DNA of 40,096 bases from Terriglobia bacterium (GTDB lineage Bacteria > Acidobacteriota > Terriglobia > 20CM-2-55-15), in the NCBI GenBank assembly GCA_036496425.1, contig DASXLG010000084.1, positions 1 to 40,096 of the forward strand, given 5' to 3'. Under the pieces are notes generated by a model. That model was not told where the DNA came from. It saw only the letters and a program-made list of their open reading frames with translations, and made no database searches. Position numbers and translations under genes: made by a program. Shown here piece by piece: positions 13,606-28,003 of the stretch (position 1 is the stretch's first letter; each line of letters starts with the position of its first letter).

Positions 13606-16600
13606 ATGCCACGATTTGACCGTCGATACGCCGCGGGACTTCAGGTCGCGATTTGGCTCAGCCTGGCTCTCGTCTTCGTGGCGGATCTGGCTACCCCTCT
13701 CGGTATTTCGGTTTGGGTGCTTTACCTCGTCCCGCTGATCGTATGTTTATTCGGATGGCGGCCGGCAATGCCGGTTATTGTTTCCGTACTCACCACGGTC
13801 CTGATCGTCCTTGGATTTTTTCTCAAGCCGCCGGGAATCGCGCCATCGATTGCCATACTCGACCGGGTCTTTGGCGTTACGGTCGTCTGGACGGTCGGCA
13901 TCACGGGGCACCAACTCCTTAAGAACAAGCTGATCGTCAGCGAACAAAACTGGTTGCGTGACGGCCAGAACCGGCTTGGGGCTCACATGCAGGGCGAGCA
14001 GGTCCTGCATGCATTAGGCGATAAAGTGATCCGCTTTCTAAGCGAGTATCTTAACGCTCAGGTTGGCGCGATTTACGTCCGATCGGAAGAGGGTGTGTTT
14101 GAGCGTTTTGCCTCTTATGCGCTAGACCTGGCGCTGGCTCCGGGGAACGAAAGAATTCTGCCGGGTGCAGGCCTGTCCGGACAAGTGATTAAAGACCGCC
14201 GGGCGTTTGTGCTGAAGGAATTACCTGCGGATTACATGCGCATCTCCTCCACTCTGGGCAATTCCAAACCGGCGGCTCTCATCGTGGTTCCTGCGCTCGC
14301 CGAAGGCGAAGTGGAGGCTGTTATCGAGCTCGGTTTTATTACAGAAACCGATGCCTTGGATGTGAACTTCCTGGAACTCGTGGGCGAATCCATCGGTATG
14401 GCAGTTCGGGCATCGAAATATCGCACGCGGCTCGAAGAATTGCTGGAAGAGACGCAGCGTCAGGCTGATGAGCTTCAGGCTCAAAGCGAGGAATTGCGGG
14501 TATCCAACGAAGAACTCGAGTCGCAGAGCCGTGCATTAAGAGAATCTCAGAAGCTCCAGGACTCACAACAATCGGAACTGGAAGCAACGAACACCCAGCT
14601 CGAAGAAACCAACGCGCAACTTGAGGAACAAAAGCGCGTCCTGGAAGCCCAGAAGCTCGAACTCAGCGGCGCCGACGCTGCCCTTCGCGAACGAGCGGAG
14701 GAACTGGCTCGCGCCAGCCAGTATAAGTCCGAATTCCTGGCCAACATGAGCCACGAGTTGCGCACTCCATTAAACAGCTCATTGATCCTTTCGAAACTTC
14801 TCGCGGATAACAAATCGGGCAATCTCACGGACGAACAGGTGAAGTTCGCCAATACGATCTATTCCGCCGGCAACGATCTCTTGAATCTGGTTAACGACAT
14901 TTTGGATCTTTCGAAAATTGAGGCCGGCGGGGTGCAAGTTCAGCCGGATACCGTTTCCATTGCCCGGTTGACGGATAGTCTGGTTCAGACATTCCAACCG
15001 GTGGCCGCAGAACGGAAGTTGTCGTTCACTGTGGAGACCGATAGCAACACGCCGGCGTTCCTGATCACTGATCCGCAGCGTCTCCGGCAGGTTTTGAACA
15101 ACCTGCTCTCCAACGCATTCAAGTTCAGTGAAAAGGGCGGCGTCTCCGTGCGTGTATCCACGGCGCCAAACGACGCTGTTGCCTTTGCCGTGAAGGACAC
15201 CGGCATCGGCATACCTCAGGAACAGCAGCAGGTGATATTCGACGCGTTCCGGCAGGCGGACGGCAGCACTCAGCGCAAATACGGAGGCACCGGTCTTGGG
15301 CTCTCCATTTCGCAGGATCTGGCGACGCTGTTGGGAGGCAAAATCCTTGTCGAAAGCGCCGTCGGCGAGGGAAGCACATTCAGCCTCATCGTGCCCCGCG
15401 AATCTCCTGCACAACCGGCGGACCGGAAAATGGCGGCAAGAGCGGCAACCGCAGTAGTGAACCGGCACGAACCACTCAGGCGGGAACCGCCGGTGGCGCC
15501 AAGCCCCAAGCCGGCTCCCGCTGTTTACGTAGAGGATGACCGGTCGAAGCTCCACACGGGTCAGGGAACGCGAACGCTGCTGGTGATCGAAGACGATGAG
15601 CGTTTCGCCCGTATTCTCTACGATCTCGCGCATGAGGTTGGTTTTCAATGTGTGATTGCGGGCACCGCAGCCGACGGCCTTGCGCTCGTCCGCGAAATTC
15701 AGCCGAGCGCGGTGATTCTGGATATGCGCTTGCCGGATCAATCCGGTCTCTACGTTCTCGATCAACTGAAGCGCACGCCGGCCACCCGCCATATTCCGGT
15801 TCATGTTGTTTCTGTTGCGGATAACACCTGTACGGCGCGGGAACTGGGTGCGGTCGGGTACGCGATCAAACCCGTTAAACGTGAAGAGCTGATTTCCGCG
15901 CTCCGCAAACTGGAATCGAAGCTGGACCAGACTGTCCGCCGCATTTTGATTGTCGAAGACGACGATCGCCAGCGCGAAAGCATTCAACGGCTGCTCGAAA
16001 GCCCCGGCGTGCAGCTTACGGCTGTGGCCTCGGCGGCGGAAACACTCGAACAACTTCGAGCGGCCACCTTCGACTGCGTTGTAATGGATCTCGGCCTGAA
16101 TGACATGACCGGATACGACCTTCTGGATCGAATGGCAAATGAAGAGGCGTATTCATTTCCGCCGGTGATCATATATACAGGCCGTGTACTGGAGCCGTTG
16201 GATGAACAGCGGCTTCGACGCTACTCGCAGTCCATCATTATCAAGGGCGCCCGCTCTCCAGAGAGACTCCTGGATGAGGTTACGCTCTTTCTGCATCAGG
16301 TGGAGTCGAGACTTCCCGCCGACCAGCAGCGGATGCTGCGTCTGGTACGCGACCGCGACAGCGTTCTTGAAGGACGGCGGATACTGGTGGTCGAAGATGA
16401 CGTCCGCAGCATTTTCGCCATTACGAGCATTCTTGAACCTAAGGGAGCGAAGATCGAGATTGCCCGCAACGGAAAAGAAGCGATTGAAATTGTCGAGCGC
16501 GGCCTGAAGCAAAAGCCGATTCCAAGCGCAGGCCTCGCCAGTGAATCAGGCCCGATCGATCTTGTGTTGATGGATATCATGATGCCCGAAATGGATGGGC

Positions 16601-16788
16601 TGACGGCGACCCGGCAAATCCGGAGCAGAGGTGAATTTGCGCGTCTTCCGATTATTGCGCTCACTGCCAAGGCAATGCCGGACGATCGCGAGCAATGCAT
16701 TGCCGCCGGCGCCAACGACTACATCTCAAAACCCCTGGATGTGGATAAGCTCGTCTCGTTAACCCGTGTATGGATGCCCAAGTCATGA
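13606..16788 (+). CDS. Hybrid histidine kinase with membrane sensor, GAF domain and three receivers
   Basis: A 1060-residue phosphorelay hub. Residues 10-103 hold three or four membrane segments without a large periplasmic loop. A GAF-like domain covers about 130-270. A strong coiled coil rich in Glu/Gln/Leu (about 275-370) leads to HisKA with H383 (FLANMSHELRTPLN) and an HATPase domain (NLLSNAFKFSEKGG, DTGIGIP, GGTGLGLSISQDL). Three receivers follow with acceptors D706 (VILDMRLPDQSG), D828 (VVMDLGLNDMTG) and D990 (LVLMDIMMPEMDG). No HPt domain is visible in the protein, so any relay step would need a partner. It overlaps the CheR gene by 4 bp. Confidence 0.95.
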   Translation: MPRFDRRYAAGLQVAIWLSLALVFVADLATPLGISVWVLYLVPLIVCLFGWRPAMPVIVSVLTTVLIVLGFFLKPPGIAPSIAILDRVFGVTVVWTVGITGHQLLKNKLIVSEQNWLRDGQNRLGAHMQGEQVLHALGDKVIRFLSEYLNAQVGAIYVRSEEGVFERFASYALDLALAPGNERILPGAGLSGQVIKDRRAFVLKELPADYMRISSTLGNSKPAALIVVPALAEGEVEAVIELGFITETDALDVNFLELVGESIGMAVRASKYRTRLEELLEETQRQADELQAQSEELRVSNEELESQSRALRESQKLQDSQQSELEATNTQLEETNAQLEEQKRVLEAQKLELSGADAALRERAEELARASQYKSEFLANMSHELRTPLNSSLILSKLLADNKSGNLTDEQVKFANTIYSAGNDLLNLVNDILDLSKIEAGGVQVQPDTVSIARLTDSLVQTFQPVAAERKLSFTVETDSNTPAFLITDPQRLRQVLNNLLSNAFKFSEKGGVSVRVSTAPNDAVAFAVKDTGIGIPQEQQQVIFDAFRQADGSTQRKYGGTGLGLSISQDLATLLGGKILVESAVGEGSTFSLIVPRESPAQPADRKMAARAATAVVNRHEPLRREPPVAPSPKPAPAVYVEDDRSKLHTGQGTRTLLVIEDDERFARILYDLAHEVGFQCVIAGTAADGLALVREIQPSAVILDMRLPDQSGLYVLDQLKRTPATRHIPVHVVSVADNTCTARELGAVGYAIKPVKREELISALRKLESKLDQTVRRILIVEDDDRQRESIQRLLESPGVQLTAVASAAETLEQLRAATFDCVVMDLGLNDMTGYDLLDRMANEEAYSFPPVIIYTGRVLEPLDEQRLRRYSQSIIIKGARSPERLLDEVTLFLHQVESRLPADQQRMLRLVRDRDSVLEGRRILVVEDDVRSIFAITSILEPKGAKIEIARNGKEAIEIVERGLKQKPIPSAGLASESGPIDLVLMDIMMPEMDGLTATRQIRSRGEFARLPIIALTAKAMPDDREQCIAAGANDYISKPLDVDKLVSLTRVWMPKS

Positions 16789-17627
16789 AAGTCAAAACGG
16801 ACGCCCGGCAAGATGCCCGCATCGATATTGAAACAGAACTCCTGCTGGAAGCGATCTACCGGAAATACCACTATGATTTTCGCGGGTATGTGCGGCCGCC
16901 CTTGCAGCGCAGACTTGCAGAAGCGCTTCCAAAGTTCGGCTGTCGTACATTGTCAGCGCTTCAGGACCGGCTCATTCATGACCCGATGGTGTTGTCGGCG
17001 GTGTTGGATCGCCTGACGATACAGTTCAGCGAAATGTTTCGCGATCCTTCTTACTTCCGTTCCCTGAGGGAAGATGTAATGCCGATCCTCCGCACGTATC
17101 CTTCATTGAAGGTCTGGTGTGCAGGCTGCGGTTCCGGTGAAGAGGCTTATTCGCTGGCCATTCTGTTCCGAGAGGAAGGATTACTGGAACGAACCACAAT
17201 CTACGCGACGGACATCAATCGCGACGCTCTGAGAAAGGCCGAAGCTGGTATTTATAATATCGAGCGAATGCCCGCCTTCAGCAGGAATTATCAGCAGACA
17301 GGCGCATCGGGATCGCTCTCTGACTATTACACTGCGGCGTATGGGGCGGTCACATTGGACAAATCATTGCAGCGTCATATTCTTTTCGCGGACCACAGCC
17401 TTGCCACCGATCAGGTATTCTCAGAAGTGCATTTCGTTTCGTGCCGCAATGTCCTCATTTATTTTGACCGGGAGCTTCAATCGCATTGTTTTGGACTGTT
17501 CGACGAATCGCTATGCCACAGAGGGTTCCTCGGTCTTGGAGCCCAGGAAACGTTGCGCTCCGCGAAATGGGCAAATCGTTTTGAACCGGTCGCCGTCAAG
17601 GACCGGATTTTTCGCAAAATACGATGA
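16785..17627 (+). CDS. CheR-type glutamate O-methyltransferase
   Basis: A 280-residue SAM-dependent methyltransferase of the CheR family. An N-terminal helical part (LLLEAIYRKYHYDFRGY, typical of the CheR N-domain) precedes the SAM site VWCAGCGSGEEAYSLA, the acidic ribose-binding loop IYATDINRDAL and HFVSCRNVLIYF, all diagnostic of CheR. I chose the start at 16785 because it overlaps the hybrid-kinase stop as ATGA. A Met at 16770 is possible. There is no CheB esterase or chemoreceptor in the window, and it sits between a hybrid kinase and a receiver-kinase. It therefore probably belongs to a non-chemotaxis signalling pathway, with the methylated protein unknown. Confidence 0.92.
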   Translation: MKVKTDARQDARIDIETELLLEAIYRKYHYDFRGYVRPPLQRRLAEALPKFGCRTLSALQDRLIHDPMVLSAVLDRLTIQFSEMFRDPSYFRSLREDVMPILRTYPSLKVWCAGCGSGEEAYSLAILFREEGLLERTTIYATDINRDALRKAEAGIYNIERMPAFSRNYQQTGASGSLSDYYTAAYGAVTLDKSLQRHILFADHSLATDQVFSEVHFVSCRNVLIYFDRELQSHCFGLFDESLCHRGFLGLGAQETLRSAKWANRFEPVAVKDRIFRKIR

Positions 17628-17648
17628 GGGCTCTCTGAAGGAGTTGTA

Positions 17649-18794
17649 ATGGCAAATACAATCGCGAAAGTGCTTCTGGTAGATGACCACATGGACAATC
17701 TTACCGTTCTTGAAGCCGTGCTGAAGTCAGACGACCTTCAATTGCTGAAAGCGAGATCCGGCCGCGAGGCCCTGGAAATCCTTCTTGCCCATGAAATTGC
17801 GCTTGCGCTGATCGACGTACAGATGCCGGAGATGGACGGGTTGGAGCTTGCGCAGCTCATGCGAGGAACCGAAAGATCAAGGAGGATTCCGATTCTATTC
17901 ATTACCGCTTCGTTGCACAATCCACAGAGGGTTTTCAAAGGATATTCACTCGGCGCCGTCGATTTCATATTCAAACCGGTGGAGCCGCATATCTTGAAAA
18001 CCAAGGTCGACGTGTTTGTCCAGCTTCACCGGCAGAACCGGCAAATCGCCGAACAGCTCGAAGAGCAGCACGAAATACTCAGGCTCAACGAACTGTTATC
18101 CGCAGCAATCGCCCATGATTTGCGAAATCCACTGCAGAGCATCGCCGCTGGAGCGGCAGTGGTTCTTCAGAAATCCAGCGACGAATGCATCGTCCGCTCG
18201 ACCGCCGAGCGCATCCATGCGAGTTGTGTCCGAATGACAAAACTGATTGAGGACCTCCTCGACTTTTCAAACCTTCGATTAACGGGGTCTTTCCCTGTGA
18301 AGCCCGCGGGCACGAGCTTGCTGGAAATCGTGAAGAAGGTCATCGCGGAACACGAGTTGGCCGATGCAACAGCCACTATCAACCTTACTGCGATTGGCGA
18401 CTTGCAGGGGACGTGGGACGAATCGCGCATGTGCCAGGCAGTCTCGAATCTAATTGGCAATGCGCTCAACCACGGTGATCGCAGTGAACCGGTTACTATT
18501 GTGCTGAACGGCGCTCACCCGGATGACATCGTCTGCTCGGTCCACAATAAGGGGCATATTCCGGATTCGGTTTTGCCGTACGTTTTCGACCCGTTCAGGT
18601 CCTCTGCATCAAAGGGCTCTGGTGTGAGCGGGCTCGGCTTAGGTTTGTACATCGTTGCGCAGATTGTGAAGACTCATGGCGGTTCCATTGGCGTAGACTC
18701 CAAACCGGACACGGGAACCGGTTTTACGATAGAGCTGCCGCGGCACGTTCCCGGTGCCCACCAGATGCGAATGGAGCGCTGCCTGGGCGCCTGA
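17649..18794 (+). CDS. Receiver-histidine kinase fusion protein
   Basis: A 381-residue soluble protein with an N-terminal receiver (D12-D13, D56 in ALIDVQMPEMDG, K109 in FIFKPV). A coiled coil leads to HisKA with H156 (SAAIAHDLRNPLQS) and an HATPase domain (VSNLIGNALNHG, GLGLGLYIVAQIVKTHGG). The G1 region reads VHNKGHIP. It lacks the usual DxGxG, a variant seen in a subset of kinases, so catalysis should not be assumed. It starts 21 bp after cheR with GAAGGAG upstream. It likely receives phosphate from, or reports to, the 1060-residue hybrid kinase. Confidence 0.92.
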   Translation: MANTIAKVLLVDDHMDNLTVLEAVLKSDDLQLLKARSGREALEILLAHEIALALIDVQMPEMDGLELAQLMRGTERSRRIPILFITASLHNPQRVFKGYSLGAVDFIFKPVEPHILKTKVDVFVQLHRQNRQIAEQLEEQHEILRLNELLSAAIAHDLRNPLQSIAAGAAVVLQKSSDECIVRSTAERIHASCVRMTKLIEDLLDFSNLRLTGSFPVKPAGTSLLEIVKKVIAEHELADATATINLTAIGDLQGTWDESRMCQAVSNLIGNALNHGDRSEPVTIVLNGAHPDDIVCSVHNKGHIPDSVLPYVFDPFRSSASKGSGVSGLGLGLYIVAQIVKTHGGSIGVDSKPDTGTGFTIELPRHVPGAHQMRMERCLGA

Positions 18795-18813
18795 TCCTGT
18801 TCCTCTTCGCGGC

Positions 18814-18831
18814 CTATACCAAAGTGTAGTT
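18814..18831 (+). promoter_or_regulatory. Shared 18-bp upstream motif, copy 2, overlapping a small palindrome
   Basis: CTATACCAAAGTGTAGTT lies 54 bp before the receiver/ZAS gene. It matches the element at 13483-13500 at 16 of 18 positions. Here it overlaps a palindrome, GTGTAG-TT-CTACAC (18824-18837), which would suit a dimeric regulator such as the FixJ-type protein. Confidence 0.45.
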
Positions 18832-18885
18832 CTACACGCTCTAAGTAGAATAGCTATCCAGCCGCGGCAACCCTACTATCGAACA

Positions 18886-19467
18886 ATGCGATTTCCGGAA
18901 GGTGTGATCTCGGTTGTTGATGACGACGAATCGGTTCGCGCGTCAACCGGGAATCTACTCCGATCCGTTGGCTATCGAGTCGAAACTTTTGCAGCGGCCC
19001 ATGATCTCCTGAATTCAAGAGCGCTCGAAGAAACCGGCTGTCTGCTTCTGGATTTCCGCATGCCGGGCATCGATGGCTTGCAGTTGCAACGGCGCCTGCA
19101 CGACGGCGGCTTCCGTATTCCGATCATCTTCATCACCGCGTTCGATGATAGATTTCTGCGGCAAAGGGCAATGGAGTGCGGCGCAGTAAACGTGCTGCAC
19201 AAGCCATTCGATGCGGCGCTCCTCCTGGAGGCCGTCCGGATCGCGCTGCATCGAAGCCGCTCGGCACACATTCCTCATGCAAAACTCATGGAAGCCGCGG
19301 AGTCTTGTCTCACCGAAACGGCTGAAGTGACCCGCGTTTTATCGGCACGGGAATCCGAACACCTTGGCGAATGTTCCGAGTGCGTTGATGCGCTTGCAAA
19401 TATGGTCCGTGAAATGGTTCGCGGCCGTCACGAAAAGAAAGCTCAGGCAATGGGATCAGACGAGTGA
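18886..19467 (+). CDS. Response-regulator receiver with a ZAS-like (H-x3-C-x2-C) C-terminal tail
   Basis: A 193-residue protein. Residues 5-120 are a FixJ-type receiver (D12-D14, D56 in LLLDFRMPGIDG, K106 in VLHKPFD). Instead of a DNA-binding domain, the tail (about 135-193) contains C141 and then H159-x3-C163-x2-C166 in SEHLGECSECVDAL. That spacing is the zinc-coordinating signature of anti-sigma (zf-HC2) domains, like HLAVCAGC in the anti-sigma protein at 34241-34873. An Arg/Lys-rich end follows. The start at 18886 gives a normal receiver N-terminus. Function is inferred only: phosphorylation may control sequestration of a sigma factor or partner. Confidence 0.8.
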   Translation: MRFPEGVISVVDDDESVRASTGNLLRSVGYRVETFAAAHDLLNSRALEETGCLLLDFRMPGIDGLQLQRRLHDGGFRIPIIFITAFDDRFLRQRAMECGAVNVLHKPFDAALLLEAVRIALHRSRSAHIPHAKLMEAAESCLTETAEVTRVLSARESEHLGECSECVDALANMVREMVRGRHEKKAQAMGSDE

Positions 19468-19867: not shown

Positions 19868-21037
19868 TCAGCGGACGATGCCGAAAGCCGCCTTTTCCTC
19901 GCCTTCCTCCTTCAGTCTTTGCGCGACGCGTACAAGCAGCGGCCCGAGGGCGGTTTGTGACCAGAACCACTCGTAGAGGGCATTGTCCCGGTCATGAGGC
20001 CGCTGTTGCATCCGCGCTTCCAGCATGAATGCCTTCAGGTCGTCGGCAGCACGCCGGATGAACAAGGGAGCCGGGGTGCCGGCCGGCTTTTCCGGATAAG
20101 CCTCAGGCGCGCCTGCCGCGTATGCCTCGAGGAAGCGGACGAGTCCGCGGAATCGGCGCTGGGGTATGCCGGAGTTTCCGACGGCGGTCCGGCCGTCGTG
20201 TTCCTTAAGCCAGCGCTCGTAATAGCCCCGCATGGACGTTAAATCGTCCGCCGGATCGCGCTTCGCAGTGCCCGGTACGATTTCGCTGGCCTGGATCAGC
20301 CGCACCGGCGCGTCTGCAGCCTCCGGGAATTCCGCGAGTACAGGTGCGGACGCGCCAAAGAGATCCAGCGCCGCGCTGAGAACTCTGTGTTGAAACTCCG
20401 CGTCGTCCGGCTTACCCAGAGCATAACCGTAGGGAAAGGGCACAAAGAGAGCGCGCGGCGGCTTGGTACGCCGGGCATGTTCTTTGAGGAGCACCAGACT
20501 GCACGTGGGCAATCCCGCTCCCTCCATCGCGCGGGCGAGCACACTGACCGTGTGCGTGCAATTGGGTCAGGTTGGAGTCAAAAGCGCCGCACCGGCCCCT
20601 TCCGCGAGGAGCAGGCGCGCGACCTCGGGCCCCGTCTCCTCCAGAATCTTTTTAGGGTTTGTCTGGGCCCCCATGAAGGAGTAGTCATGTAAAGTTCTCG
20701 ATCCCAGCGTGCCCCGTTCCACCAACTCCCGAAGCCGGTCGCGGGGGAATGTGACGTTCAGGTCCCGGTATATCGCGGTGCGATCGAAACCGATGCTGTT
20801 ATGGCTCTGAAGGATGTCCCGGGCCGGCGTATCGGAAGGAATCGGACGGTAACTCTGATCGCCGGGAGAAAAGGGATGGTCCCCGCGGCAGTGCAACCCC
20901 GCTGTCGTCACCAATGCCAGCTTGAGTTTCCGGAGCGGCTCGCGCAATGGAACGAATGGAGAGTCATCGTACTCGAAACACGGAAAGTTCAGCACCGCCT
21001 GGCGCTGCGCGGCACTCAGATCTTCGATGTGCGGCAT
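19868..21037 (-). CDS. GrdB-like selenoprotein (glycine/sarcosine/betaine/D-proline reductase selenoprotein B family), UGA read as Sec
   Basis: Two in-frame halves (156 and 232 residues) are separated only by a TGA at 20567-20569. Together they form a 389-residue protein of the orphan GrdB/PrdB-like family. The first half has PFVPLREPLRKLKLALVTTA, then GLHCRGDHPF, and later YSFMGAQTNP. The TGA lies in LLTPT-U-PNCTHTVS, giving Sec157-x2-Cys160, where family members have UxxC or CxxC. A SECIS-like hairpin follows immediately (20539-20555). The protein is probably redox-active; its substrate is unknown. The start at 21037 has AAGGGA upstream; a Met at 21070 is an alternative. It is third in the UspA-ClC operon. 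No selA/B/C genes are in the window. Confidence 0.82.
20539..20555 (-). promoter_or_regulatory. Bacterial SECIS-like stem-loop downstream of the in-frame UGA
   Basis: On the minus strand, a perfect 6-bp stem GCACAC/GTGTGC closes a 5-base loop, GGTCA. A 2x2 internal loop and two more G-C pairs lie below it. The loop begins about 21 bases from the U of the UGA. In E. coli fdhF, SelB binds an apical GGUC loop at almost the same distance (about 22). The match in loop sequence, position and stem supports recoding. It is read by eye, without folding software. Confidence 0.7.
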
Positions 21038-21093
21038 GTCGGTCCGGTTTCCCTTCGCTCCTTTCCACATGAAAATACCATGCGGATTGCAGT

Positions 21094-22917
21094 TCAGTCC
21101 TCGAAGAGTTCCAAACCCTCCGTCAACGCTCTGGCGATCTCCGCCTGTCCGATAACGCCCTTGATATCGAGGCGCCCGGCGAGCCGGCCGGCGCCTTTCG
21201 CCACGCGCGCCGTGACGATCGCAACGGATGCCCGAGCGTGTTGCATCGTGGCAAGCAGCTCGAAAAGGGTGGCCTCTGCTGTGACCGTAACGAAGTCCGG
21301 CCGCACGAGTTGATCGAGCCGCCTCGCGTTGCGTAAGACGTCAGTGTGCGTCAGAGCCCACTCGCGCGAAATGAATCCCGCGATCTGGTCATCCTTGACG
21401 AAGACAAAATAAGCCGCGCCATTCCCATCTTCATCAAACGTCATGCGCGCCGGCGCCGAGCCGGCCGGAAGAACGTCGGCCTTGGAGATGGCGAGACCGG
21501 CCACGTGACGCACAAGATGGGCGTTTGCCTGCAGCGCGTAGGGCATGACATGGCCGCGGCGCACCAGTTTCATGGTGTAAATGCTCTCAGGAAGTATCAG
21601 GCGGCGAAGACCATAGCTGACGGCCACAACAAACGTCATCGGCAGGACGACCGCATAGTTCAGGGTCATCTCAAAAATCATGACGATTGCCGTCAGAGCG
21701 GCGCCGGTCGCTCCTGCGACAAGGCCGGCCATTCCCGCAAGCGCGAATACCGCCGGATGAATTTCGAGCGCGGGAAGGAAGTGCTGAAGAACGCCTGCAT
21801 AGGCGGCTCCCAGCGTGGCGCCCATGAAGAGCGATGGAGAAAAAATACCGCCGGAAGCACCCGAGCCGAGGGTGCAGGATGTCGCCACGAGTTTCAACAG
21901 CCAAAGCAGCAATAAGAACCAGATACTACGCACAGAGCCGGTGAGCACGTCGATAATCGTCGCGTATCCGACACCTTCGATGTAGTAGTGTCCCGTCAGC
22001 CGGAACAGCGTCGTAAACATCACTCCGACGATGAGCATTCCGATGGCGTGGCGGATGTATGGATGCTTCGGAACGAGTTGCTCGAACAGGTCTTCACCGC
22101 CGTAAAGCATGCGGATAAAGACCACCGAAGCCGCGGCCGACACCACACCGAGACAGGCGTATGCCGGTAACAGCGCCGCCGTTTCCGGAATATGCAATGG
22201 CGGCACGGGAAATGCGGGAGCGCTGCCGAACAGATAGCGGGCCACGTAGGTCGCGGTTGTGGTTGCGAGAGCGACCGGTACCAGTGTCCGGGCGCTGACC
22301 TCATGAAGCAGTACTTCGACGGCAAACAGCATCCCGCCGATCGGGGTGTTGAATGTGGCGGCAATGCCGGCGCCGCCTCCCGCCGCAACCAGCGTCGCTC
22401 TCTGCCAACGCGACACCCGGATCATTCGGCCGCTGAAGGACGCAAACGCGGCTCCGATCTGTATGATCGGGCCTTCCCTGCCGACCGATCCTCCCGTTCC
22501 GATCGAGATCGCGGATGCCAACGCTTTGATCGCGGCCACCACGGGACGGATCACGCTGTTTTTGTAATAGATGGCATCCATGACCTCCGGAACGCCGTGC
22601 CCGCTGGCTTCAGGCGCAAAAGTCAGGACGAGAAATATAACGCATATACTGCCGGCGATCGGGACAAATGCCACCGCCGGACCCCAGGGGCCGGCCGGTG
22701 TATGGCGATTGGTGTCGTATACAGTCGAAAGCCGGCCAAGGAACGCCAGGTTGTGGCACAACGCAATCAGAATGCGAAATCCGAATGCGCCCAGACCGGC
22801 GACGAAGCCCAGCACCACCGCGAGAGCGCCAAAGACCGGCGGCGAAAGAGACCGGTGCGTCTCGTCCACGATCTGCCTGTTGAGGGCCGCGGCCGGGGGG
22901 CGAACTTCCGGCGGCAT
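21094..22917 (-). CDS. ClC-family chloride channel/antiporter with C-terminal CBS region
   Basis: A 607-residue inner-membrane protein of the ClC family. The three selectivity motifs are present: GHGVPE (variant of GSGIP) near residue 107, GREGP with the gating Glu at E148, and GSGASGGIFSPSLFMGATLG around residue 350. About ten or more membrane segments are visible. A cytoplasmic tail (about 460-607) looks like a CBS pair (YFVFVKDDQIAGFISREWAL, FVTVTAEATLFELLATMQHA). The start at 22917 shares one base with the UspA stop (TAATG), so the genes are coupled. Channel versus H+/Cl- exchange cannot be decided from the sequence. Confidence 0.94.
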   Translation of the reverse strand: MPPEVRPPAAALNRQIVDETHRSLSPPVFGALAVVLGFVAGLGAFGFRILIALCHNLAFLGRLSTVYDTNRHTPAGPWGPAVAFVPIAGSICVIFLVLTFAPEASGHGVPEVMDAIYYKNSVIRPVVAAIKALASAISIGTGGSVGREGPIIQIGAAFASFSGRMIRVSRWQRATLVAAGGGAGIAATFNTPIGGMLFAVEVLLHEVSARTLVPVALATTTATYVARYLFGSAPAFPVPPLHIPETAALLPAYACLGVVSAAASVVFIRMLYGGEDLFEQLVPKHPYIRHAIGMLIVGVMFTTLFRLTGHYYIEGVGYATIIDVLTGSVRSIWFLLLLWLLKLVATSCTLGSGASGGIFSPSLFMGATLGAAYAGVLQHFLPALEIHPAVFALAGMAGLVAGATGAALTAIVMIFEMTLNYAVVLPMTFVVAVSYGLRRLILPESIYTMKLVRRGHVMPYALQANAHLVRHVAGLAISKADVLPAGSAPARMTFDEDGNGAAYFVFVKDDQIAGFISREWALTHTDVLRNARRLDQLVRPDFVTVTAEATLFELLATMQHARASVAIVTARVAKGAGRLAGRLDIKGVIGQAEIARALTEGLELFED

Positions 22918-23372
22918 TAGTGAGCCGCATGGATGACTCTGACGATCTCGACCGAGCAAGCCGCATGATGGACCACCGCGTCGGAGACGCTGCCGGTAAG
23001 CAATCGCTTCAATCCACTCCGGCCATGCGACCCGAGTACGATCAGATCTGCGCCCCATGCCTGGGCTTCATCGAGAATCTCGCCTCTGGCATCACCCTCA
23101 TGAACGGTCCACTCTGTGCTGAACCCGGCCGCCTCGAGCCTGGCTGCCGCGCTCGTGAGCAGTTGCCGGGCCTCTTCATACTGCTCGTGTCTCGCCGTTT
23201 CGTAGTCGGGATACTCTTTACTGCCCTTGGCCTGGGCGCGCCGGGTGGGAAACGGATCGGCAACATGCAGAAGGCGGAGCGTTGTGTCTGCCGGCCGCAT
23301 CTCGGCGCTCAACATCTGTATGATGGCATCTGAGTAGGGAGAATCATCGACGGCAACCAGAACTTTAAGCAT
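22917..23372 (-). CDS. Universal stress protein, UspA family
   Basis: A 151-residue cytoplasmic protein. It opens with MLKVLVAVDDSPYSDAII and has the ATP-binding signature G-x2-G-x9-G-S as GSHGRSGLKRLLTGSVSDAV, followed by the usual SVEIVRV end. Single-domain, normal length. I placed the start at 23372, since an upstream extension to 23480 lacks family similarity. It is first in an operon with the ClC transporter and the selenoprotein, which suggests an ionic, acid or redox stress context (inference). Confidence 0.94.
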   Translation of the reverse strand: MLKVLVAVDDSPYSDAIIQMLSAEMRPADTTLRLLHVADPFPTRRAQAKGSKEYPDYETARHEQYEEARQLLTSAAARLEAAGFSTEWTVHEGDARGEILDEAQAWGADLIVLGSHGRSGLKRLLTGSVSDAVVHHAACSVEIVRVIHAAH

Positions 23373-23544
23373 CTGATTTGGCCTCCACTCCCGAATATCC
23401 GGAGCCGTCGTGAACCGGAGCCCGGCTTCAGTCCGGACATCGCCGATGTCTGTTCGATAGAAAACAGAAGTGCACGTCACATTCCCGAATACGCTGGCAG
23501 TAATAAATCCGGCAAAAAAGGCGGGACGGCGGGCGCTCTCGGAT

Positions 23545-26704: not shown

Positions 26705-27070
26705 CTAGCTCGAGTGGCTCAAACTGAAGATGAGGATGGTGAGCACGATCAGGCTGACAGCGACGTATAGATTGTCGCGTTCAAAATAGAACCCCACAGC
26801 GGCCAGCGCCACGCGGGCAACCGGTGTGGCAATCAGCACGAGCAGTCCGAACTGGATCAATGCCTCGCTGTTGAGATGGAAGGCGGAACGGACAATCCCG
26901 CCAATCGTTCGCAGATCGGCGCTCTCTGAGGTGAATTTTGCGTAACGCGGCTGCTCCGCATGGTGCTGGACCAGATAGAGCGCGCCCGCCGCGCTGACGA
27001 TGACTGCAGCCGCGAGGACGCCTGTGCGGAGGACGGTCCCGATCATCGATTGAAGTTGCCGGTCCGTCAT
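26705..27070 (-). CDS. DUF1634 membrane protein
   Basis: A 121-residue protein with three membrane segments (VLRTGVLAAAVIVSAAGALY, LIQFGLLVLIATPVARVALA, YVAVSLIVLTILIFSLS). These match the small DUF1634 family, whose members commonly sit next to TauE/SafE exporters. It starts 6 bp after the TauE/SafE gene ends, so the two are one operon. It may be an accessory subunit of the exporter. Confidence 0.87.
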   Translation of the reverse strand: MTDRQLQSMIGTVLRTGVLAAAVIVSAAGALYLVQHHAEQPRYAKFTSESADLRTIGGIVRSAFHLNSEALIQFGLLVLIATPVARVALAAVGFYFERDNLYVAVSLIVLTILIFSLSHSS

Positions 27071-27076
27071 TGCCGT

Positions 27077-27916
27077 TCAGATCCTTCCGGTTATTCCGTT
27101 AAAAATCATCTCCGCCGCCAGCACGAAGATCACTGCCGCGAATACTTTCCTCAAGGCGGGAACGCTTGCGCGAACAAGGATTTTGGTGCCGAGCAATGCG
27201 CCGCAAAGCACGCCAAGCATAACCGGCATCGCAAGGCCCGGATCGATGTAACCGCGGCTGAGGTAAACGCCCGCGCTCGCCGCGGCGGTGACGCCGATCA
27301 TGAAATTGCTCGTCGTGGTCGAGACCTTGAAGGGAATCCGCATCGCCCGATCCATCGCGATCACTTTTACGGCGCCTGAACCGATCCCCAGCAGTCCCGA
27401 CAATGCACCTGCCCCGATCATCAAACCGAACCCGGCTGGAACATTTCGCACGCCGTACGGAATAGGCCCATCGGGCCCGGGATACGTACCGTGCAGCTTG
27501 AATCTCCTGGCCAGCGCGTCTTCGGCTGCAGACTCGCCGCCGGAACGCCTGAAATCAGATACGGACTGGTATGCCGAATAAAGCAGAGTGACGCCGAAGA
27601 CGATTGCAATGGTCCCGGTCGTTACGTAGGTTGCAAGGAAAGCTCCAAATAGAGCCCCGATCGTTGTTGCGATTTCCAGCAGCATTCCGATTCTGATGTT
27701 GGAATAACCTTCCCGGACGTATGCAGACGCGGAACCGGAGGATGTGGCGATGACGGACACCAGAGAGGCGCCGATCGCGTACCGGATATCCACTCCGAAC
27801 GCGAGCGACAGCGCGGGCACGATGACCACACCCCCACCGAGGCCGGTGAGCGCTCCAAGCAATCCTGCGATGAATGCCGTCAACCCAAGAAGTAAAGTGA
27901 ATTCGAGTGTCGTCAC
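27077..27916 (-). CDS. TauE/SafE-family sulfite/anion exporter
   Basis: A membrane protein of about 279 residues with roughly eight segments and the duplicated family motif: AGLLGALTGLGGGVVIVPAL with AIGASLVSVIATSSGS near the N-terminus, and SGLLGIGSGAVKVIAMDRAM with KVSTTTSNFMIGVTAAASAG in the second half. The family exports sulfite, sulfoacetate or related C-S compounds. Substrate here is not resolved. No ATG gives a clean N-terminus. I used GTG at 27916 just before the first helix; a Met at 27979 would add 21 basic residues. Confidence 0.9.
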   Translation of the reverse strand: MTTLEFTLLLGLTAFIAGLLGALTGLGGGVVIVPALSLAFGVDIRYAIGASLVSVIATSSGSASAYVREGYSNIRIGMLLEIATTIGALFGAFLATYVTTGTIAIVFGVTLLYSAYQSVSDFRRSGGESAAEDALARRFKLHGTYPGPDGPIPYGVRNVPAGFGLMIGAGALSGLLGIGSGAVKVIAMDRAMRIPFKVSTTTSNFMIGVTAAASAGVYLSRGYIDPGLAMPVMLGVLCGALLGTKILVRASVPALRKVFAAVIFVLAAEMIFNGITGRI

Positions 27917-27977
27917 AATCCGGCTGAAAAAACATCTTACCGGAGCGCGATGCAACTTACATACTGGGGCTTTGCAC

Positions 27978-28003
27978 AAAAACGCGATTTCAACATGTCG
28001 CGT
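27978..28003 (-). terminator. Probable intrinsic terminator of the ABC exporter operon
   Basis: On the minus strand, a 6-bp stem ACGCGA/TCGCGT with a 10-base loop ends in TTTT. It begins 6 bp after the stop of the permease gene. The stem is short, so efficiency may be low. Confidence 0.4.

What the first reader, a model, noticed from the sequence alone, without database searches (positions are those of the whole stretch)
19868..21037. A GrdB-like gene with an in-frame UGA at the UxxC position and a SECIS-like hairpin
Seen: two adjacent in-frame coding halves are split only by a TGA, and the family homology runs straight through it (LLTPT-U-PNCTHT). A 6-bp stem with a GGTCA loop starts 12 bases after the TGA, and its loop lies at nearly the same distance from the UGA as the GGUC loop of E. 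coli fdhF. Known: family members carry Sec or Cys here. Inferred: it is a selenoprotein, so the host should have SelA/B/C/D. Automated annotation would split it into two genes or call it a pseudogene. Its operon with UspA and ClC is an unusual setting.
Basis: partly seen in the sequence, partly recalled or inferred. Interest (0 to 1): 0.85.

Follow-up and report, generated by a model that had tools for sequence, protein, structure and literature searches.

The report
Selenoprotein with an unnamed helical tail
This bacterial gene really is read through an internal stop codon to insert the rare amino acid selenocysteine; it belongs to a known family of selenium-dependent reductase proteins, but carries an extra, unnamed helical domain shared by a small clade of relatives, and its chemistry is unknown.

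Summary
On the minus strand (21037 to 19868) two coding halves are joined by an in-frame TGA (20569-20567) in a UPNC motif. It is a genuine selenocysteine codon: a 73%-identical orthologue in another genome has the same TGA, both halves are under purifying selection, 55 distinct homologous sites have TGA there, and the genome holds selA, selB, selC and selD (selD itself has a Sec codon). The hairpin is real by covariation, not by folding energy: 4 of 6 stem pairs have two-sided changes, 99.4% of cells pair, covariation score 0.654 against 0.197 shuffled and at most 0.094 slid; the loop GU is invariant; non-Sec homologues lose the stem.

It is PrdB-like rather than GrdB (NCBIfam PrdB 145 bits, below cut-off). 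The host draft lacks the PrdA/GrdE partner and GrdA, so D-proline or glycine reductase is unlikely. The UspA-ClC setting is not conserved.

What is new is modest: a ~150-residue all-helical C-terminal domain, without Pfam, NCBIfam or PDB match, defines one clade of long PrdB-like selenoproteins in two phyla. Sec PrdB-like proteins themselves are well known (235 in the Global Ocean Sampling data).

The parts
19868..21037 (-). Complete Sec-containing gene, about 388 residues, Sec at residue 157; TGA stop at 19870-19868 (alternative ATG at 21070)
   Evidence: Open frame with TGA read as Sec; orthologue L025 73% identical over the length with the same start, Sec codon and end
20567..20569 (-). Selenocysteine UGA codon, U of the UPNC motif
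   Evidence: TGA at the same codon in 55 distinct homologous sequences; selA, selB, selC, selD in the genome
20539..20555 (-). Bacterial SECIS hairpin: 6-bp stem 20555-20550 / 20544-20539, loop GGUCA 20549-20545
   Evidence: Covariation score 0.654 against 0.197 shuffled and at most 0.094 slid; invariant GU in the loop; stem lost in non-Sec homologues
20326..21037 (-). PrdB/GrdB-like alpha/beta domain with the UxxC motif (about residues 1-237)
   Evidence: TIGR04483 E 2.1e-42, 145 bits; Pfam GRDB 25.7 bits; AlphaFold model pLDDT mostly above 90
19871..20325 (-). C-terminal all-helical extension of about 150 residues with a conserved DDL...EA...WFW.ETA pattern
   Evidence: Found only in the long forms; no Pfam or NCBIfam match; model pLDDT 78.6, no PDB fold match; dN/dS 0.16 against the orthologue
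21094..22917 (-). ClC-type chloride channel gene, stop 23 bases before ATG 21070 of the selenoprotein frame; neighbour, not part of a conserved unit
   Evidence: Pfam Voltage_CLC 305 bits; absent from the other long-form loci
22917..23480 (-). Universal stress protein (UspA) gene, overlapping the ClC start (TAATG); neighbour only
   Evidence: Pfam Usp 119.8 bits; overlap read

Best explanation
It is a functional selenoprotein of the PrdB/GrdB-like family. Shown: the UGA is conserved as a Sec codon, a conserved hairpin follows it, and the host has the whole Sec pathway. From established knowledge: SelB-GTP with Sec-tRNA(Sec) binds the hairpin loop and decodes the UGA, giving one protein of about 388 residues. 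Inferred: the UPNC selenol/thiol pair is a redox or nucleophilic centre (selenenylsulfide with Cys160) that cleaves or reduces a small electrophilic or disulfide substrate without a pyruvoyl partner subunit. The C-terminal helical domain probably supplies part of the substrate pocket or a partner or oligomer interface. The substrate is unknown.
For: Same TGA in a 73% orthologue and in 55 distinct homologous sites. Purifying selection before the UGA (dN/dS 0.11), after it (0.04) and in the extension (0.16). SECIS covariation: 32 cells with two-sided change against 8.1 shuffled, 99.4% paired; Cys or Ser homologues form only 2-4 of the 6 pairs. selC 68.5 bits, called tRNA-SeC with anticodon tca by ARAGORN; selB 378, selA 527, selD 364 bits with its own Sec codon in GUAGKL. 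PrdA/GrdE family absent from the genome, with a working positive control on a Terrisporobacter prd plasmid. Confident two-domain model, pLDDT 87.4, pTM 0.85.
Against: No protein-level evidence. The hairpin is not unusually stable for its composition (z -0.39). The genome is a draft in 407 contigs, so absence of partner genes is provisional, and the GrdA search had no positive control. The reaction is inferred from the motif only.
Confidence: 0.93

Rival explanations
1. Pseudogene or sequencing error: the TGA is a nonsense change in a former Cys gene.
For: A standard ORF caller sees two pieces.
Against: The same TGA in an independent 73%-identical orthologue and dozens of homologues, purifying selection on both sides, hairpin covariation, full Sec machinery.
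Confidence: 0.01
2. It is the PrdB subunit of a D-proline reductase, or the GrdB subunit of glycine/betaine/sarcosine reductase.
For: Best family model is PrdB; UxxC motif shared.
Against: 145 bits against a PrdB cut-off of 300; no PrdA/GrdE or GrdA found in the genome; an extra C-terminal domain that PrdB lacks; no such partner gene beside it.
Confidence: 0.04
3. A selenium-dependent reductive dehalogenase working with the adjacent ClC channel, which would export the halide.
For: GrdB-like selenoproteins are proposed to cleave C-F in fluoroacetate (PMC10838667); the ClC gene ends 23 bases upstream in this genome.
Against: ClC is absent from the other long-form loci, including that of the 73% orthologue. 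A Cys homologue in Roseomonas lies about 2 kb from a ClC gene, but opposite-strand genes intervene. The published operon has a GrdE-type partner.
Confidence: 0.04
4. UGA is read only sometimes, the truncated 156-residue product being the main one and readthrough regulatory.
For: Sec insertion is generally inefficient and selenium-dependent (general knowledge).
Against: The part of the domain just after the UGA is the best conserved segment (dN/dS 0.04) and holds the presumed resolving Cys.
Confidence: 0.03

Closest known systems
D-proline reductase subunit PrdB (TIGR04483)
   Same: Homologous alpha/beta domain, UxxC Sec motif, in-frame UGA
   Different: Score less than half the family cut-off; no PrdA partner found in the genome; about 150 extra C-terminal residues; about 36% identity
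Glycine/betaine/sarcosine reductase selenoprotein B, GrdB (PF07355)
   Same: Matches the last 136 positions of the profile; UxxC motif
   Different: Lacks the rest of the GrdB profile; no GrdE/GrdA found
'PrdB' (UxxC) selenoproteins of marine metagenomes, PMC1088965 and PMC2398784
   Same: UxxC PrdB-like selenoproteins, already one of the most abundant marine selenoprotein families; the short forms fetched here probably belong with them
   Different: The short forms fetched here lack the C-terminal helical domain; the passages read in those papers do not mention a long form (whole texts not read)

Membership tests
Bacterial selenoprotein gene | In-frame UGA aligned with Sec or Cys in homologues | tested here: met
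   55 distinct UGA sites; Cys or Ser in others
Bacterial selenoprotein gene | SECIS hairpin just downstream with conserved loop G/U | tested here: met
   Covariation 0.654, loop GU invariant
Bacterial selenoprotein gene | Host SelA, SelB, SelC, SelD | tested here: met
   All four over family cut-offs
Bacterial selenoprotein gene | Selenium in the protein | not testable with these tools
   Needs 75Se labelling or mass spectrometry
D-proline reductase PrdB (TIGR04483) | Score over the equivalog cut-off of 300 bits | tested here: not met
   145.2 bits
D-proline reductase PrdB (TIGR04483) | PrdA pyruvoyl subunit in the genome | tested here: not met
   PF09338 finds none in G000 but finds PrdA in the control plasmid; draft genome
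Pfam GRDB superfamily (PF07355) | Score over the gathering cut-off | tested here: met
   25.7 against 22 bits
Glycine reductase GrdB proper | Full-length profile match (TIGR01917) and GrdA/GrdE partners | tested here: not met
   28.2 against 602 bits; GrdE family not found, with positive control; GrdA not found, no control

The most novel reading that the evidence does not exclude
The long PrdB-like selenoproteins are a self-contained selenoenzyme class in which the C-terminal helical domain replaces the pyruvoyl subunit of proline/glycine reductases, giving a new single-subunit selenium-dependent reduction of an unknown substrate.
Probability: 0.25. Interest if true: 0.65.

Novelty: new variant of a known kind. 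Interest (0 to 1): 0.4.

Why it matters
It documents, by covariation inside coding sequence, a Sec insertion element in a gene that ordinary gene calling cuts in two, and it separates a two-domain clade from the PrdB label that annotation would give it. That label implies D-proline reduction, which the genome does not support. Stand-alone PrdB-like selenoproteins are abundant in nature but their reaction is unassigned; a conserved fused domain gives a handle for finding it.

Tried and rejected
Rfam on the locus: no relevant match. Folding energy as evidence for the hairpin: not significant, rejected as support. PDB by sequence profile: only spurious matches to designed or repetitive proteins and the like. 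Foldseek against PDB for the whole model and for the C-terminal domain: nothing at E <= 0.001. Operon function through ClC or UspA: rejected, neighbours not conserved.

Full report
Observation. The gene lies on the minus strand. With TGA read as a residue the frame is open from ATG 21070 (or 21037) to the stop at 19870-19868, with Sec in ALLTPT-U-PNCTHT. Ordinary ORF calling gives two pieces. The orthologue L025 in a same-family genome starts at the Met corresponding to 21037, has the same UGA, and ends at the same point with a stop other than TGA. So the internal TGA is a Sec codon and the last TGA a true stop.

Sec machinery. The window's own genome (6.16 Mb, 407 contigs, 95% complete) has tRNA-Sec (68.5 bits, over the gathering score; ARAGORN calls tRNA-SeC with anticodon tca), SelB (378 bits), SelA (527 bits) and SelD (364 bits). 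SelD itself carries an in-frame TGA in the motif GUAGKL.

Conservation of the codon. Homologues occur in 19 of 61 relatives and 102 of 396 genomes of the phylum. Of the loci read in detail, 55 distinct sequences have TGA followed by P-x-C. Among seven homologues without TGA, four have Ser (SRLC) and three Cys; one of the Cys forms has an extra residue in the motif. Against the 73% orthologue, dN/dS is 0.11 before the UGA, 0.04 after it and 0.16 in the C-terminal extension; synonymous change is close to saturation, so these are rough.

SECIS. The 6-bp stem sits in the same register in all non-bulged sequences. On 26 distinct sequences, 99.4% of cells pair; four pairs have two-sided changes; covariation is 0.654 against 0.197 for shuffles (0 of 500) and at most 0.094 for slid partners. 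The loop G22-U23 is invariant. A telling case is pair 19-27: the first base of a Thr/Ser/Ala codon changes together with the silent third base of the Gly codon (ACC-GGT, TCC-GGA, GCC-GGC). Ten short paralogues use a stem shifted by one with a bulge. Non-Sec homologues form only 2-4 of the 6 pairs. Folding energy alone would not have shown this. Caveats: the stem was chosen from the window's sequence, the ten bulged paralogues were left out of the count, and related sequences inflate the shuffle test; the slide test keeps relatedness.

Family. Pfam GRDB matches at 25.7 bits (cut-off 22), on the last 136 positions only. The best NCBIfam model is PrdB, 145 bits against a cut-off of 300. PrdA/GrdE (PF09338) is not found in the genome; the same search finds PrdA on a Terrisporobacter plasmid that carries prdA-prdB, so the search works. 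GrdA is not found either, without a positive control. Hence it is a PrdB/GrdB-superfamily protein but not a demonstrated member of either reductase. Sec PrdB-like proteins are known: 42 in the Sargasso Sea set (PMC1088965) and 235 with 110 Cys homologues in the Global Ocean Sampling set (PMC2398784). D-proline reductase and GrdB are listed as known UxxC selenoprotein families in PMC13188914.

The difference. Most homologues end at about residue 240. The window protein, its orthologue, seven genomes of one distant genus and a gammaproteobacterial MAG (L050) continue for about 150 residues. All ten carry Sec. In a tree of the shared domain the long forms are one side of a branch (SH-aLRT 93, short search; L050 is a long branch). 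A profile of the extension finds no stand-alone copy in 396 genomes of the phylum, and in the window's family it is present in only 2 of 11 genomes. It has no Pfam or NCBIfam match. AlphaFold gives a confident two-domain model (pLDDT 87.4, pTM 0.85), the extension being all-helical (predicted alone, only two of its five models were confident). Neither model has a PDB match at E <= 0.001.

Setting. Upstream lie UspA and ClC on the same strand, tightly packed. Neither is found near the 73% orthologue or the other long-form loci; in the distant genus the neighbours are MmgE/PrpD and a branched-chain-type ABC system. Co-transcription here is plausible, a conserved functional unit is not supported.

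Verdict. The selenoprotein reading is about as secure as sequence can make it. The reaction is unknown. The family is known; the two-domain clade appears unnamed in the libraries searched.

Noticed in passing
L033-L041, L044: Same-genus and same-family genomes carry a different short PrdB-like selenoprotein (TGGUPLCHRT) whose SECIS stem is shifted by one base with a bulged A, yet keeps the GGUC loop.
   Followed up: partly
L094, L095, L096, L098: Homologues in one family of the phylum have Ser, not Sec or Cys, at the catalytic column (SRLCHQ), while the second Cys is kept; suggests loss of the selenol chemistry or a changed function.
   Followed up: partly
L056 (G046:C24 304370-306490): Two convergent Sec PrdB-like genes lie next to each other in a genome with four copies.
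   Followed up: no
L108 (NZ_CP154621.1): A 21-kb Terrisporobacter plasmid carries prdA, prdB and selD: a possibly portable selenium-dependent proline reductase module.
   Followed up: no
L020 (G000:C219): SelD of the host is itself a predicted selenoprotein (GUAGKL), so the gene of this window is not the only Sec gene in the genome.
   Followed up: yes
window 13606-19467: A run of hybrid histidine kinases and response regulators on the opposite strand.
   Followed up: no
window 26705-27979: DUF1634 gene next to a TauE/SafE sulfite-exporter-family gene.
   Followed up: no
L109 (Roseomonas plasmid): A Cys homologue lies beside SelO and about 2 kb from a ClC gene, but opposite-strand genes intervene; probably coincidence.
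   Followed up: partly
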